Shown here: positions 1 to 10,320 of the stretch, piece after piece
Layout of the letters: each line of letters opens with the position of its first letter
Numbering within the stretch: the stretch's first letter is position 1
NCBI GenBank assembly: GCA_913058255.1
Contig: CAJXQU010000019.1
Span: 1 to 36,412 of the forward strand
Direction: 5' to 3'
DNA: 36,412 bases
Source of the DNA: an uncultured Pseudomonadota bacterium
Lineage (GTDB): Bacteria; Pseudomonadota; Gammaproteobacteria; CAJXQU01
Made by a program: the position numbers and the translations under genes
The notes under the pieces: model-generated
Databases searched by the model: none
Told to the model about the DNA's origin: nothing
Seen by the model: the letters and a program-made list of their open reading frames with translations, nothing else

Positions 1-43
1 CAGAGTAGATCCTCGGCAGCGTCAGAATGTGTATAAGAGACAG
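1..43. other. Nextera i5 index and sequencing adapter (artefact)
   Basis: Not genomic. Bases 2-9 read AGAGTAGA, which is the Nextera i5 index known as N/S504. Bases 10-23 match the Nextera read-1 adapter tail with one substitution, and bases 24-43 match the Tn5 mosaic end (ending TATAAGAGACAG) with one inserted A. The junction with real DNA lies inside a CRISPR repeat at base 44. The contig therefore stops here for technical reasons, and the array continues beyond it in the genome. Confidence 0.95.
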
Positions 44-3000
44 GTGTGCGGCAGCGAACGTGGTTGGAATTTTAGAAAGAACTGACAGTGTTTTCTAAGC
101 TGCGTGTGCGGCAGCGAACTCACTATTCTCAGGTTCCGGCGGAGGCCTGTTTTTCTAAGCTGCGTGTGCGGCAGCGAACTGAAGAAGCCAAACAAAAAGA
201 CTCAATCAATCTTTCTAAGCTGCGTGTGCGGCAGCGAACCAACCGAACACAACGGAATGTCTGATGTTGTCTTTCTAAGCTGCGTGTGCGGCAGCGAACG
301 GTATGTTTTCGATCTTAACCTCCCTCTTTCTTTTCTAAGCTGCGTGTGCGGCAGCGAACTGGGCGCACGATGCAGGCAGTGGTTGTTAGATTTTCTAAGC
401 TGCGTGTGCGGCAGCGAACTCAGTCCTATCATGTAACTGCCAACCGTATACTTTCTAAGCTGCGTGTGCGGCAGCGAACGGTTCACAAGCTGCGGATCGA
501 AATATTCACCCTTTCTAAGCTGCGTGTGCGGCAGCGAACGTTACGTCGGTAGTACTTACGTGTCCATTTACTTTCTAAGCTGCGTGTGCGGCAGCGAACT
601 TTCGCCAGCCGGCTTAAATCTTTTTAACAATTTTCTAAGCTGCGTGTGCGGCAGCGAACCAGCAGAGTGATAGAGTTCGTAAACATCTTTCTTTCTAAGC
701 TGCGTGTGCGGCAGCGAACTTGAAATTATATCTTATATTGCAGACTTTGATTTTCTAAGCTGCGTGTGCGGCAGCGAACCACGCCGAGATTGTCTCATTG
801 TATGCTTCACCTTTCTAAGCTGCGTGTGCGGCAGCGAACCTGTAAAAGTCCTGCAAGCCGTAAAAGCTCAATTTCTAAGCTGCGTGTGCGGCAGCGAACA
901 CTTGGATGAGTGCTGAAGAGTGTGTAGCAATTTTCTAAGCTGCGTGTGCGGCAGCGAACAAGTCAAAGCAAGAGGTAAAAGCAAATAAACATTTCTAAGC
1001 TGCGTGTGCGGCAGCGAACTAATGACAATCTATTTTGTGACAGGAAAACTTTTTCTAAGCTGCGTGTGCGGCAGCGAACTTTCGGTGTACGATTTGGTCT
1101 CTGCAACAAGCTTTCTAAGCTGCGTGTGCGGCAGCGAACGTCCCGAAGGTGAATATTTTGATCAGTTAACTTTTCTAAGCTGCGTGTGCGGCAGCGAACG
1201 TGTGAGTATCCGTGTCCTCAATTTGAACAATTTTCTAAGCTGCGTGTGCGGCAGCGAACGCATCAGAAGACGCGAGCAAAGCGGCAAATCATTTCTAAGC
1301 TGCGTGTGCGGCAGCGAACGAAATTTTCCGACAGTCTCGGGTAAAATTATCTTTCTAAGCTGCGTGTGCGGCAGCGAACCAACCTTAGCCGCGATTTCTT
1401 TTTGACCGACATTTCTAAGCTGCGTGTGCGGCAGCGAACATTACTTTCAGTGAGCCACAGCTTGAATATCTTTTCTAAGCTGCGTGTGCGGCAGCGAACT
1501 GTTGATTCGACGAGATCATTTAAAACACTAATTTCTAAGCTGCGTGTGCGGCAGCGAACGTTAAAAGCTCAACTTTTGAGAATACTAATATTTTCTAAGC
1601 TGCGTGTGCGGCAGCGAACTATTCTTGTCGAATACGACGCTTGCACTTGATTTTCTAAGCTGCGTGTGCGGCAGCGAACTGTACAATGTGCGTCACGTCG
1701 CCCAAATCTTCTTTCTAAGCTGCGTGTGCGGCAGCGAACGCGGTATCGTCGCGATGGCTTTAGGAATTTTGTTTCTAAGCTGCGTGTGCGGCAGCGAACT
1801 TATTTTAGTGGTCGTTTCGATCTACATGCCCTTTCTAAGCTGCGTGTGCGGCAGCGAACAAAGTGAAGAACTGGAAAGAGACGCTAACGAATTTCTAAGC
1901 TGCGTGTGCGGCAGCGAACTGATCCTTTGGCTTAACGATCATGCTGCCACATTTCTAAGCTGCGTGTGCGGCAGCGAACTCGACCGCTTCGCGCGATCCG
2001 CTGGCGGTAGATTTCTAAGCTGCGTGTGCGGCAGCGAACGATCAGGCGTTTCAATATACACAGACCATTCATTTCTAAGCTGCGTGTGCGGCAGCGAACC
2101 AAGCTGATCGCACCCACCTTGCGACGCGTGATTTCTAAGCTGCGTGTGCGGCAGCGAACCTGCAAAAACATGGCCTGTCAACTGCTCCATCTTTCTAAGC
2201 TGCGTGTGCGGCAGCGAACTGATTGTCCCACATTTCCCACATTACAACGTCTTTCTAAGCTGCGTGTGCGGCAGCGAACATGATATGTTTGCTTTGTCAT
2301 TTTCTGACATTTTTCTAAGCTGCGTGTGCGGCAGCGAACGAGGGAACACGAACTCAACTCCGTTAACCGTTTTTCTAAGCTGCGTGTGCGGCAGCGAACT
2401 AGCGGGGTAGCCTCTTTTATGCAGAGCACTCTTTCTAAGCTGCGTGTGCGGCAGCGAACGAATCTCTTCAACGATAACTGGGTTTTCAGTTTTTCTAAGC
2501 TGCGTGTGCGGCAGCGAACAGTGCCAGCCTTGCCGATAATCAGTTGCCCTTTTTCTAAGCTGCGTGTGCGGCAGCGAACGAAATTAGCGGCTTAACACCC
2601 GCCAGCGATATTTTCTAAGCTGCGTGTGCGGCAGCGAACGATAGCTTTAAAAGCATGGAGCCTGATGTTGATTTCTAAGCTGCGTGTGCGGCAGCGAACT
2701 AATGGATAGCACTAAACCAGAACTCTATAACTTTCTAAGCTGCGTGTGCGGCAGCGAACAGAGATCACAAAATTCAGCAGTAACTAATACTTTTCTAAGC
2801 TGCGTGTGCGGCAGCGAACTGTCGCGCAGCCTTGGCGTGACTTCAATCATCTTTCTAAGCTGCGTGTGCGGCAGCGAACAGCTTCGGTTTGTTGGTCAAC
2901 TGCCCTTTGGTTTTCTAAGCTGCGTGTGCGGCAGCGAACCATTCGATGGCGCTCGGAATACGCGGCGAGAATTTCTAAGCTGCGTGTGCGGCAGCGAACC

Positions 3001-3659
3001 CGTCAAAAATTGATAAATTCCAGTTAACGCTTTTCTAAGCTGCGTGTGCGGCAGCGAACGCCGAATTATCGTTTGATCGATCAACAGACTTTTTCTAAGC
3101 TGCGTGTGCGGCAGCGAACAATACGTTCTCCCCGTGATAATCATAGCCGCTTTTCTAAGCTGCGTGTGCGGCAGCGAACATGCAATTGACCAGTTTTTAA
3201 ACGTTCAGGGTTTTCTAAGCTGCGTGTGCGGCAGCGAACTGCCACAGGCATTGAGTTAAGCAACAAAATATTTTCTAAGCTGCGTGTGCGGCAGCGAACT
3301 CTTTTGTTGATAAGCACTCACCGCATTTTAATTTCTAAGCTGCGTGTGCGGCAGCGAACATTCGCGGGACGTTAACAGGCACAAACGTATATTTCTAAGC
3401 TGCGTGTGCGGCAGCGAACCTACCTGTTGCTACAAATATAGACTTGTATATTTTCTAAGCTGCGTGTGCGGCAGCGAACTTTGCGTAGACCGTGTTACCC
3501 TGTGTGAACATTTTCTAAGCTGCGTGTGCGGCAGCGAACGAGTATAGTATATGGAGGCTATTATAAGTGTTTTTCTAAGCTGCGTGTGCGGCAGCGAACT
3601 TGTATTGCTAGTCGAAGTTGATTCTAAAACATTTCTAAGCTGCGTGTGCGGCAGCGAAC
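44..3659 (-). CRISPR. Type I-F CRISPR array, 60 spacers, distal end cut off
   Basis: Sixty identical 28-bp repeats start at 92 and recur every 60 bp up to 3632-3659; a sixty-first partial repeat (16 bp) lies at 44-59. All 60 spacers are exactly 32 bp. Read on the minus strand the repeat begins GTTCGCTGCC and ends CTTAGAAA, the I-F signature, so transcription runs from the leader at 3660-3789 towards base 1. Cas6f should cut after base 20 of the repeat, giving an 8-nt 5' handle CUUAGAAA and a 3' hairpin. No repeat is degenerate, as expected if the old leader-distal end is missing. I saw no duplicated spacers by eye. The 60-bp period is a multiple of three, so open frames made of repeated peptides run through the array; they are not genes. 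Confidence 0.99.
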
Positions 3660-3789
3660 CCAAGTTTATCAGACAAAAAAATAGCTACAACAGTCACTTA
3701 CTTTAAATGTAGAGTTTTTACCCTTTATTTATAGCGGTGTTGTAGCTAATTGTTTTTTAACGTTTTTTTAAAGAACTGGTTTTTATTGG
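3660..3789 (-). promoter_or_regulatory. CRISPR leader
   Basis: This is the AT-rich stretch between the cas6f stop codon and the first repeat, at the end of the array expected for an I-F leader given the repeat orientation. A TATAAA element on the minus strand (3728-3733) could be the -10 box of the array promoter, but I see no convincing -35 box. A TATCAG at 3667-3672 resembles the first half of an IHF site without its second half. In known I-F systems the leader both drives transcription and directs integration of new spacers. Confidence 0.8.
3682..3748. repeat. 11-bp inverted repeat in the CRISPR leader
   Basis: TAGCTACAACA at 3682-3692 is perfectly complementary to TGTTGTAGCTA at 3738-3748, with 45 bp between the arms. 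The inner arm lies about 22 bp from the first repeat and the outer arm just upstream of the TATAAA element. It could be a paired protein-binding site for adaptation or regulation, or a long-range hairpin. Function is not known. Confidence 0.6.
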
Positions 3790-4344
3790 TTAAAACCAAG
3801 GTATTGTTGCAAGTTTACTTAATCCAAAGGTGTCGAAGTCTCCTGTTACAGGAGTCTTTTGAGCATCGCCCATTTGTATATATCTACGATGGAACTGTCC
3901 GTTAGAGCCACTTTCTAATTCAAGGAAAGGTAGTGCGGTCATTTGGGATGCAAACATTTTAGCTTTGTATCCTTTTATTTCATCATCAGATATTGAGCCT
4001 CTTTTTATCAAGCGCCTCAAATGGGACTCGCTCATAGTACTTTGCCAGCGTGAAACTTTACGATTTTCAAAACTGGAAGGAATCGGTAATATATTACTGC
4101 ATTCGCAATAACCAGATAATCCGCCGAGCCACTTGATATGATTCAATTCCAATAGTCGCTTTTCAGTGGAGTGAATACGAAGTAATTTGCCGAGTAAAAC
4201 TTTGGTTTCAGGAAAGCTTATTCCAATATCATTTGATGCCATATCGAATAAGGCCTTGTGTAACTTTGAATAAACTTTATTCATGAGCACATTTTTACGC
4301 ATTTCGGCATCAGGTTTTAATCTAATATCTATATAATAATTCAA
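3790..4344 (-). CDS. cas6f: Cas6f (Csy4) crRNA-processing endoribonuclease
   Basis: Cas6f cuts the pre-crRNA within each repeat and stays bound to the 3' hairpin of the mature crRNA as the head of the Cascade complex. The 184-aa protein matches Pseudomonas Csy4 in length and layout: N-terminal YYIDIRLKPD, catalytic His29 in KLHKAL, the Ser of SGSNGQ near residue 147 corresponding to the catalytic Ser148, Arg99 and Gln101 corresponding to the base-reading Arg102/Gln104 pair, an arginine-rich helix around 108-115, and the C-terminal FGLSK...PWF signature. Trp100 sits between the two base-reading residues where Pseudomonas has Val. It is the last cas gene, 11 bp after cas5fv and directly before the leader. 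Since the repeat hairpin is unusual, this enzyme may have shifted contacts (inference). Confidence 0.95.
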   Translation of the reverse strand: MNYYIDIRLKPDAEMRKNVLMNKVYSKLHKALFDMASNDIGISFPETKVLLGKLLRIHSTEKRLLELNHIKWLGGLSGYCECSNILPIPSSFENRKVSRWQSTMSESHLRRLIKRGSISDDEIKGYKAKMFASQMTALPFLELESGSNGQFHRRYIQMGDAQKTPVTGDFDTFGLSKLATIPWF

Positions 4345-6337: not shown

Positions 6338-9292
6338 TTAATCCCTTTCTTTATGAGTTATGTGGTTGATGGATATTGCACCTATGGCTTGTTTTTCGCA
6401 GACACCATAGTAAATAGCTGAGCTATGCCTTGCGGTCTCACCACCCACGGGGAGTAAGTCGTTCGGGCTATAACTTAGATAAATTGGAAACTCTGGATCT
6501 TTGGCATCATTGAGTAGAATAAAATCTTTAAAAGGTTTAGTCCCTCCCATGATGTTGTGATGTTTTTTCACCATGTAGGTCAGCAAGTTTTTACTACTGT
6601 CTCCATAACCTTGTATTAGGTCACATGATGCTGTCAGATTGTCTATTTCTTCTGTTTCAAAAGTGGGGACTGTGTATGCATATCCTTCGATAAATTCAGG
6701 AGCTTCTTTTTCATCAAGATTACACAATGCCATTTGAACAAAACGGCTATCACCTCGGAGTGACTTACTGCTGATCTTTGCCCGCTGCTTTTGTTGTTTT
6801 TTGCGAAATATCATGGTTTGAGGCTCGCTGATTTTAGAGGTTATCACACCAACACTTTTATTCATTGAAGCAAGCATGTCTTGCTCAATAGCATTCATTG
6901 CGGGTGATTGGTGGTTGTAAAACTCTTTATAGTATTGATAGATGTCTGCAATGCTTTGTGCTTTGCTACCGTTATCCGTTTTCTCTAGTAGGAAGGTGTA
7001 CCAGGCTATTGAAGACGACAAGCTATTTGAAGATGAAAGAAAATGCGCTACTGCTCCAGTTCGTTTTCCTGCATGAAGTGTTTCAGGTATTGCTATTCTG
7101 TAGCGGTTAGTGTCTTCATTTTGACCAAAACGATCCAGTCGGCCCATACGTTGCAAACAGTTTTCAGAAGTGGTTATTTCAGACACCATGTGATCACAAC
7201 TAATATTGAGAGAAGCTTGAACAATAGGGCCACTTCTTAAAAGATCATAATCTCTGCCGCCATCGCGTTTAAACGCATTAAACACGTTGTTGAAAATCTG
7301 TTTTTTATCACTTTTTTTGTATTTTGAATGTAATAATATTGCATTTTCATCGGTTAGATTACTAATGAAACTTTTTTGTGCCGTGATAGCGGTATTGCTG
7401 ATGACGAATGTCGTCAAGTCTTGAGTTTGATAAAGGGGATTAGTTTGATCTTCTTTTGTTTCATCATATGTCACAAAATCGAACTGATATTTTTTTTGAT
7501 TAAAAGATGGCATTTCTATTACGTCATAATCAACATCAAGGTTGAGTATCTTTTCAAGATAATAATAATTTGGTGTCGCTGAGACTAATAACGCATTGCA
7601 ACCATTTTTTAATTGATTTCTAGAAAGGATCAGTTCAGCAAATAATAAATTAAATGCGGGCATGTTGATGTATTCATGATATTCATCAAAAACAACGTGT
7701 GCACTAAGGTAGTTAAGCAAACGATCAGCTTTCGTATGGCTGATCACACTACTGAGCAGTTGATCTATTGTGGTTATAACAATATCGCCGGTTAATTGTT
7801 CATTATCTGGAGTGGGCGTTTCGAAATTGTTTGTGAACTTAAATTCGCCGGTAAATATTTCAACCGTTGCATCTTGCAAATAAGGTGTGTCAGAGGTTTT
7901 TAGCTCGTTAAACATGCCCTGGCAAATTTGAACTCGTGGACATACCCATATGATTTGTTGTGCGTTGGTTAAGCCTGCCCATTCGAGTGCAATTTTTGTT
8001 TTGCCACATCCTGCAGCGCCTGCTAGCACTTTCACATGTTCATTATCCTCGGCTAATATTGATGCTACCGAAGCTTGTTTTTGAGTGCGCTCACTGTTTG
8101 GGAATTGGCTAATGCTATCGTGAATATAGGAAGGTAAATTACTTTCTACAATGACATTGTTTATCAATTGTTCTTCTACAAGATCATGAATGTTCTTGTT
8201 TTTAATATATTGGGATAATTTGTTTGGAGATAGCGCTGAAACCCAGCGATCTGCAGTGATTAAGCAAGCACGTATTTCGTTATTATTGGCATTAGTCAAC
8301 GCTTTATCTTGATAATCGTTGATCTGCTCAGATTGACTGTAGTCTTTATAAGAAGCTTGTGGCGTGTTCTCATAGTTGGTTAAAACTTCATCATCTAGTT
8401 CTTGCATGAATGTTTTTTCGAGGAAACTATTTGTTTCACTGCGGTATGCTTTGTCTATGTCACAGACCTTATTCAACATGCTAATGGATTGTTCAGAGAC
8501 AAGTAACGGAGCTTTGTCACCTAAACTGATTTTTAGTTTGTTATAAATTTTCCCATGAGTGTCAAAATCATCTTTGTTTTTTGGACGATAAGGTTTGGCA
8601 TGATGCCAATAAATAGCGTGTTTAATAGATGGCTTTATTTGACTAATTCCTTTGGTTCTGTCTGATAAACACTGAAAAATAAGCGCTGATATTTCATTAT
8701 GTCGCGGATGCTTTTCAAAACTAAACTTGGTGTCATCAATATGTTGACCATCTTCGGCTAGGTAATCTTGATTTTTCGGTTTAATTACCCAGTTTTGGAA
8801 GGATGGATCTAGCTTGCCTATGTCATGTAAACAACCTGCGGCAAAGGAGGCATTAGCTTGATTTTTTTTATTTGGATAAAAGTGTAAATAAAGTAACTCT
8901 GCCACGTGGCCTACACCAAATAAATGCTCTTCTAATGGTTGTAAATGCGTATTCGCATATAACATTCCCTTAACGGGTTTTGCCTGCTTTATATCCATAA
9001 AGACCTCTTTCTGTGTTGTGTTAACTGGAACTATCCCGTTTGTGTTGAACTTTTCTCGGCTCCCTACAAGCCAAACAAGCTCACTGCGCGATCGACTACG
9101 AATCCAATGACAACTAACCGCAGTGTTTTTAGTAGCTGTTTTGCGAAGTAGTTTCTTGACGGCGTTGAGTCCATCTTGAGTGATGACGGTTTGCCAAGTG
9201 TTGTTACCGAGCCGATCGGCAAATGCATCTAGCACTCGTCGTGTTCTGTTGAGTGCTTTTTTTTCGCATTGGGAAATGAATGTGACCATCAT
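6338..9292 (-). CDS. cas3: Cas2-Cas3 fusion: adaptation and target-shredding helicase-nuclease
   Basis: Type I-F Cas3 carries an N-terminal Cas2 domain, so one 984-aa protein serves both spacer acquisition (with Cas1) and DNA degradation. Visible parts in order: Cas2 domain about 3-78 ([27 protein letters not shown]); HD nuclease from about 115 (His123, His129, HDIGK at 156-160, paired His around 230); superfamily 2 helicase with Walker A GAAGCGKT 425-432, motif II DEYH 536-539, motif III SAT 571-573 and motif [10 protein letters not shown] 714-721; then a C-terminal domain. All key motifs are intact, which suggests an active effector. Its ATG overlaps the cas1 stop codon by 4 bp, implying translational coupling. 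DEYH in place of DEAH/DECH is a family-level variation. Confidence 0.96.
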
Positions 9293-10242
9293 CGTGTTTC
9301 TTCTTCTGTTTTTAAGGCGATGGTTTTAACCTGCTCAAACATAAAATCCAATGCTTTGTGTTGGGTAAATGCTTGCAGGCATTGCTGGCGGAATTCTTGT
9401 TCTGTCGCACCTTCTTTTGCGCAGATAAATGCCCATGGCAATACTAGGGTGTCTTTGATGAGATCCGCGACATCAAACACCAGTGCTCCGCGTCTTGTTT
9501 TGCCATGCATGACTGCAAAACCATGGGGTATCCCAAGAACCCAAAGGGTTGTTGCTGCGAGACCGTAAGCTAGGTAGTTTCCATGGTCGAGAAAATTATT
9601 AGCGATGTCTGTGGCTTCTCTGTCTCTTACGAAGTTACCGTATTGTGTTTTACTTGCCGCTGTTTTATAGAGGCTTTTGGTTAGCTGTGCTTCTATTTGA
9701 AGAAGGTCGATAATCCTTGGGGCACGTTCTGTTTTGTATGTGAAGATTTCTAAAGCTTGAGAAATGTCAGTTTCTTCTGCTTTAAAGCCTTCAGCCATGA
9801 GATCACGATCTTTACTCCAAATGTTTTTTAAATACGCTATTCTGGATTGTTGGAATTGGCGTGCGGCTTCGAGACGTTTTTCTTCATCAAACCAGAACTT
9901 CATCCAGCCTTGAACATATTCTGTAGGACGATATTCGCTTTGTGGTGTGAGCCATTCAATCTCATTAGCCATCAATAAGGGTGTTCCACCGCCGCCACAA
10001 AACCCTACTAAGACACCAGCCGACGCTAACATTCGCATAGCTGCTTGAGTAATTGACGTGCCTGTCCCTAGTAATAAGCATGTGGTGTTGGCAATAGGGA
10101 TATTCCAATATTGGTTTTCACTTTTTGCTTCCGTTAGGTAGAGCACGCGACCGTCTTTTTGCATGACACGGCATTTATCCAAATAGTAAATATTGGCTCT
10201 TTTCGAATGCAGTATTGCCTTTAGATCGGTTAGTTGTTCCAA
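9289..10242 (-). CDS. cas1: Cas1 integrase, type I-F
   Basis: Cas1 is the metal-dependent integrase that inserts new spacers at the leader end, here partnered with the Cas2 domain of Cas2-3. The protein is very close to Pseudomonas type I-F Cas1: LHSKRANIYYL, WNIPIANTTCLLLGTGTSI, GFCGGGGTP, TPQSEYRPTEY, and FLDHGNYLAYGLA. The catalytic triad is visible as Glu184 (IEAQLTK), His246 (VMHGKTRRG) and Asp260 (FDVADLIKD). I chose the TTG at 10240-10242 because GGGAG (10251-10255) lies 8 bases upstream, giving 317 aa; another in-frame TTG at 10255-10257 adds five residues but has no good ribosome site. Neither is ATG, and weak initiation could limit adaptation proteins (inference). Confidence 0.96.
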   Translation of the reverse strand: MEQLTDLKAILHSKRANIYYLDKCRVMQKDGRVLYLTEAKSENQYWNIPIANTTCLLLGTGTSITQAAMRMLASAGVLVGFCGGGGTPLLMANEIEWLTPQSEYRPTEYVQGWMKFWFDEEKRLEAARQFQQSRIAYLKNIWSKDRDLMAEGFKAEETDISQALEIFTYKTERAPRIIDLLQIEAQLTKSLYKTAASKTQYGNFVRDREATDIANNFLDHGNYLAYGLAATTLWVLGIPHGFAVMHGKTRRGALVFDVADLIKDTLVLPWAFICAKEGATEQEFRQQCLQAFTQHKALDFMFEQVKTIALKTEEETR

Positions 10243-10320
10243 AGCTATGTCTCCCAACTTAGTTTGATGAATGTTTGAGTCTACACAGGTGGTGGCTCAA
10301 AACATGGCCCAGTAATAATG

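What the first reader, a model, noticed from the sequence alone, without database searches (positions are those of the whole stretch)
60..3631. First spacer base almost never C: a footprint of PAM choice
I counted the leader-side (crRNA 5') first base of all 60 spacers: A 28, G 16, T 15, C 1. The last base shows no comparable gap (in crRNA orientation A 22, C 17, T 11, G 10). I-F systems use a CC PAM just 5' of the protospacer. If capture slides to the innermost CC in a run of Cs, the first spacer base would rarely be C. The bias therefore records adaptation by this system and predicts a CC-type PAM.
Basis: partly seen in the sequence, partly recalled or inferred. Interest (0 to 1): 0.6.

Follow-up and report, generated by a model that had tools for sequence, protein, structure and literature searches.

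The report
CRISPR array avoids C-starting spacers
The memory units of this bacterial CRISPR array almost never begin with the base C, because the system cuts them out next to a CC signal; the effect is real and strong, but it has been described before for this CRISPR type.

Summary
The 60 spacers of this type I-F2 (I-Fv) array begin A28 G16 T15 C1.

Adjacent spacers 54 and 55 match one family of phages, always with CC immediately 5' of the protospacer (best matches have 3 and 6 mismatches). Among I-F2 arrays from other genomes and plasmids, 41 of 42 arrays with at least 20 spacers have too few C-first spacers (7.3% against 21.8% overall). In a second set of I-F arrays it is 25 of 25.

Two qualifications. 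A C-run rule alone does not explain the family: A/T is favoured and G disfavoured at position 1, with A/T in excess over positions 1-5 (this array itself fits a plain "no C" rule). And 33-nt spacers often begin with C (36% against 6.7%), as expected if one PAM base is kept.

The phenomenon and the innermost-PAM preference were published for type I-F by Staals et al. 2016 (PMC5059440). Added here are mainly the extension to I-F2 and natural-array statistics.

The parts
60..3631 (-). CRISPR array, 60 spacers of 32 nt; leader-proximal spacer 1 at 3600-3631, spacer 60 at 60-91; continues on contig G000:C29 for 23 more spacers
3632..3659 (-). first (leader-side) repeat, 28 nt
3660..3789 (-). leader-side region between cas6f and the array
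   Evidence: position only; polarity supported by the decayed repeat at the far end of the array
420..451 (-). spacer 54; protospacer in Vibrio phage PS25B.1 head-tail connector gene, 29/32 identical, 5'-CC flank
360..391 (-). spacer 55; matches the same phage family with 6 mismatches at best, 5'-CC flank in 7 of 7 places
1740..1771 (-). spacer 32, the only spacer that begins with C
3790..4344 (-). cas6f
   Evidence: TIGR02563
4356..5360 (-). cas5fv; PAM-reading glutamine of Shewanella Cas5fv (Q113) conserved as Q111
   Evidence: PDLC02041; alignment to 5o6u chain; role of Q113 from PMC6546366
5376..6335 (-). cas7fv
   Evidence: NF040577
6338..9292 (-). cas3fv, helicase-nuclease; residues 1-98 match the N-terminal part of the type I-F Cas3f (Cas2-3) model
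   Evidence: PDLC02033 and TIGR02562 1-98
9289..10257 (-). cas1f
   Evidence: TIGR03637, PDLC02026
10321..11322 (-). WYL-domain regulator upstream of cas1
   Evidence: PDLC01457

Best explanation
The missing C is an adaptation footprint of a type I-F2 system. Cas1 with the Cas2-3 fusion captures prespacers at a CC dinucleotide (GG on the other strand) and prefers the copy that directly abuts a non-C base, so that in runs of C the innermost CC is used; 32 nt starting just after it are integrated. Shown here: the C gap in all parts of the array, in nearly all other I-F2 arrays, the CC flanks of two window spacers, and the excess of C-first among 33-nt spacers. Inferred: that the gap arises at capture or 3'-end trimming by Cas1-Cas2-3 and not by later selection; this rests on the published I-F acquisition data. 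In the family a second, weaker preference for A/T at positions 1-5 acts on top; that is the length of the splayed single-stranded end of the I-F prespacer, which suggests that easily opened PAM-side ends are captured better (inference).
For: C-first 1 of 83, 0 of 23 in the hold-out. Spacers 54 and 55 have CC flanks in 38 of 38 and 7 of 7 homologous phage places. For 10 I-F2 spacers with matches of 6 mismatches or fewer, CC sits at the canonical offset in 7, against 5 in 100 spacer-offset chances elsewhere. 41 of 42 I-F2 arrays and 25 of 25 arrays of the second I-F set are depleted. 33-nt spacers begin with C in 16 of 45 against 6.7% of 32-nt ones, p = 3e-8, repeated at 15 of 51 against 117 of 1252, p = 7e-5, as in the slipping data of Staals 2016. 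C-first frequency does not fall with array age, against slow selective loss. The I-Fv effector reads the same two G-C pairs and its glutamine is conserved here. I-F prespacers carry 5-nt splayed ends and a 3' GG.
Against: Only two window spacers could be matched, to one phage family, with 3 and 6 mismatches at best; their homologous places are not independent. Innermost-CC choice was not tested here on C-runs. Family-wide, G is also depleted at position 1, which a C-run rule does not predict. L057 lacks the gap (17 of 73) although three of its spacers match phage sites flanked by CC.
Confidence: 0.85

Rival explanations
1. Trimming model: capture is not choosy about register, but the unidentified nuclease that removes the 3' GG PAM goes on removing G until a non-G base is reached, so a C rarely stays at spacer position 1.
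For: The nuclease that trims the PAM in type I-F is unknown and trimming is required for full integration. 33-nt spacers are rich in C at position 1, as if one PAM base was left on.
Against: Over-trimming should yield 31-nt spacers; only 6 of 2442 are 31 nt long, unless the far end is measured afterwards.
Confidence: 0.25
2. Melting or sequence preference: capture favours prespacers whose PAM-side end is A/T-rich and easily splayed; C (and G) at position 1 are depleted for that reason, not because of C-runs.
For: In I-F2 arrays A/T excess covers positions 1-5 (0.23, 0.08, 0.15, 0.11, 0.05) and is absent at 6; G is depleted at position 1; the splayed end is 5 nt.
Against: C (ratio to composition about 0.33) is depleted far more than G (about 0.72). 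In the window array G is not depleted at all (22 of 83), so there the C gap stands alone. The dip at position 6 partly reflects a codon-phase period of 3.
Confidence: 0.3
3. Selection after acquisition: C-first spacers are acquired normally but lost because they give poor interference.
For: No direct support found here.
Against: C-first frequency is the same in young and old quarters of arrays (0.062, 0.070, 0.054, 0.076). The bias is present in freshly acquired spacers in both naive and primed experiments (PMC5059440).
Confidence: 0.04
4. Chance, base composition or a wrongly placed repeat boundary.
For: None.
Against: Permutation and hold-out tests; 66 of 67 arrays in two sets; uniform 32-nt spacers and the standard I-F repeat boundary.
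Confidence: 0.01

Closest known systems
Type I-F spacer acquisition bias in Pectobacterium atrosepticum (Staals et al. 2016, PMC5059440)
   Same: C strongly under-represented at the first spacer base; preference for the protospacer-adjacent GG in G-runs; one-base slips linked to 33-nt spacers; stated to be common in species with type I-F only
   Different: Measured on new acquisitions in a non-I-F2 species (the latter from own knowledge). A and T were favoured there; in this array A, G and T keep their normal ratio and the C gap is deeper than the I-F2 average (1 of 83 against 7.3%, p = 0.03)
Type I-F2 (I-Fv) system of Shewanella putrefaciens CN-32
   Same: cas1, cas3fv, cas7fv, cas5fv, cas6f gene set; GG (CC) PAM read by Cas5fv; conserved glutamine
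   Different: Literature read here covers its effector and PAM, not a first-base bias of its natural spacers
PAM-trinucleotide avoidance in prespacers of E. coli type I-E (PMC6282206)
   Same: A PAM-like motif inside a prespacer lowers its use
   Different: Different subtype and motif (AAG anywhere inside the prespacer), seen in primed adaptation only; here the gap is confined to the base next to the PAM

Membership tests
CRISPR-Cas type I-F2 (I-Fv) | cas5fv and cas7fv in place of Csy1/Csy2/Csy3, no large subunit | tested here: met
   PDLC02041, NF040577, PDLC02049; five cas genes only between 3790 and 10257
CRISPR-Cas type I-F2 (I-Fv) | cas1f, Cas2-3 fusion and cas6f present | tested here: met
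CRISPR-Cas type I-F2 (I-Fv) | 28-nt I-F repeat with 32-nt spacers | tested here: met
CRISPR-Cas type I-F2 (I-Fv) | CC/GG PAM | tested here: met
   two window spacers, CC in 38/38 and 7/7 homologous places; small number of independent protospacers
Type I-F first-base acquisition bias (Staals 2016) | C under-represented at spacer position 1 | tested here: met
   1 of 83 in this array
Type I-F first-base acquisition bias (Staals 2016) | A and T favoured at spacer position 1 | tested here: inconclusive
   A35 G22 T25 in this array does not differ from composition once C is left out (p = 0.34); met in the I-F2 pool
Type I-F first-base acquisition bias (Staals 2016) | innermost GG chosen in G-runs | not tested
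   too few protospacers with C-runs; some homologues of the spacer 54 and 55 sites have CCC or longer before the protospacer, but these are not the source phages
Type I-F first-base acquisition bias (Staals 2016) | bias arises at acquisition | not testable with these tools
   needs acquisition experiments; array-age test agrees

The most novel reading that the evidence does not exclude
Beyond the known C gap, I-F2 capture prefers an A/T-rich PAM-side end of exactly the length of the splayed prespacer end (5 nt), and individual systems have their own first-base preference (for example T in 76% of spacers in L041, no C gap in L057, no A/T preference in this array), so Cas1-Cas2-3 variants differ in how they read the base next to the PAM.
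Probability: 0.3. Interest if true: 0.4.

Novelty: already known. Interest (0 to 1): 0.25.

Why it matters
It shows that the adaptation PAM of an uncultured or unstudied CRISPR system can be predicted from spacer sequences alone, without any matched phage: the base gap at position 1 named CC, and the phage matches agreed. It also extends a bias known from type I-F experiments to the minimal I-F2 branch, and gives a cheap test for odd systems: arrays without the gap, such as L057, are candidates for altered capture or PAM use.

Tried and rejected
Array searches of the phage and plasmid collections gave only one full-length protospacer (spacer 54); other hits were repeats or partial. Searches of three other I-F2 arrays (L024, L025, L034) against phages gave mostly repeats. 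A class-wide genome search with the array gave only other CRISPR arrays, which were reused as a second count set. The idea that the A/T dip at position 6 reflects the flipped-out sixth base of the Cascade seed was dropped: the pooled spacers carry a period-3 signal, which already lowers A/T at every third position. No link was found between Cas1 similarity and first-base profile (Mantel rho about 0). Two paper searches failed on syntax or length.

Full report
What is there. The window carries a complete type I-F2 (I-Fv) locus on the minus strand: cas1f, cas3fv (its first 98 residues match the N-terminus of the I-F Cas3f model), cas7fv, cas5fv and cas6f, with a WYL regulator upstream, followed by a CRISPR array at 60-3659. 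The array runs off the contig. The first 43 bases resemble a Nextera adapter, and contig G000:C29 of the same genome starts with the last 12 bases of spacer 60, then a repeat and 23 more spacers, ending in a decayed repeat. The whole array thus has 83 spacers, all 32 nt long.

The count. The 23 spacers it could not see serve as a hold-out: A7 T10 G6 C0. Over all 83 the C count is 1 against an expected 18 (p = 3.7e-8), and no shuffle of 20,000 produced a position with so few C. Given that C is absent, A, G and T keep the ratio of the spacer body (p = 0.34), so in this array the bias is simply 'not C'.

The PAM. Spacer 54 matches the head-tail connector gene of Vibrio phage PS25B.1 at 29 of 32 bases, with CC directly 5'; the three mismatches lie at spacer positions 13, 25 and 28, all in one codon phase. 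Viral contigs related to that phage were collected with four of its proteins. In them spacer 54 has 38 places and the neighbouring spacer 55 has 7 within 7 mismatches, all preceded by CC. The 55 sites have 6 mismatches or more. Under the same search, ten I-F2 spacers have a match of 6 or fewer mismatches (one low-complexity case left out); CC is at the canonical offset in seven and in 5 of 100 other spacer-offset combinations. The literature gives the same two G-C pairs as PAM of the Shewanella I-Fv effector, and the glutamine that acts on the first pair is conserved here (Q111).

Other arrays. Loci with Cas7fv from 80 genome contigs and three plasmids gave 2442 unique spacers. First base: A 0.367, C 0.073, G 0.152, T 0.408, against 0.286, 0.218, 0.211, 0.285 in the rest of the spacer. 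Of 42 arrays with 20 or more spacers, 41 have fewer C than expected; the exception is L057, from a methane-oxidising endosymbiont (17 of 73). A second set, four plasmid loci and arrays with I-F-type repeats from other genomes of the class, mostly of unchecked subtype, gave 25 of 25.

More than a C-run rule. In the pool, G is depleted at position 1 too and A/T is in excess at positions 1-5 (0.23, 0.08, 0.15, 0.11, 0.05), not at 6. A preference for innermost CC cannot produce that. Type I-F prespacers used in structural work have 22 bp plus 5-nt splayed ends and a 3' GG, so an easily opened PAM-side end is a plausible second factor; this is inference. First-base preference differs between arrays (chi-square 270, 114 df, against p of 0.002-0.7 at four other positions). 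A period-3 signal in the spacers is what capture anchored to a short motif in coding DNA would give.

Slips. Spacers of 33 nt begin with C in 16 of 45 cases against 6.7% of 32-nt spacers, and in 15 of 51 against 9.3% in the second set. That fits retention of one PAM base. One L099 spacer that begins with C matches phage sites in which CC straddles the boundary (7 mismatches, so weak).

Known or not. Staals et al. 2016 report that cytosine is strongly under-represented at the first spacer base in naive and primed acquisition, that species with only type I-F show the same trend, and that the protospacer-adjacent GG is preferred in G-stretches. The finding is therefore a correct rediscovery, made from sequence alone, in a branch (I-F2) that the papers read here do not treat for this point.

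Noticed in passing
window 1-43: The contig starts with a sequence resembling a Nextera transposon adapter (TCGGCAGCGTCAGA.TGTGTATAAGAGACAG) fused into a truncated repeat: an assembly artefact at the array.
   Followed up: partly
G000:C29 8117-9536 (L006): The rest of the array lies on this contig: 23 spacers and a terminal repeat with 4 differences from the consensus; it overlaps spacer 60 by 12 nt.
   Followed up: yes
L057 12736-17178: I-F2 array of a methane-oxidising endosymbiont without the C gap (17 of 73); three of its spacers match PS25B.1-like phage sites preceded by CCC.
   Followed up: partly
L041 9250-12430: First spacer base is T in 41 of 54 spacers, far more than in other I-F2 arrays.
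   Followed up: no
window 360-451: Adjacent spacers 54 and 55 target the same phage family, which would fit primed acquisition from one phage.
   Followed up: partly
G001:C77 28791-28820 (L004): A single I-F-type repeat at a contig end in a genome of the same genus, with a sequence different from the window repeat.
   Followed up: no
I-F2 spacer pool: Spacer base composition has a period of 3 from the spacer start, C highest at positions that are multiples of 3.
   Followed up: partly
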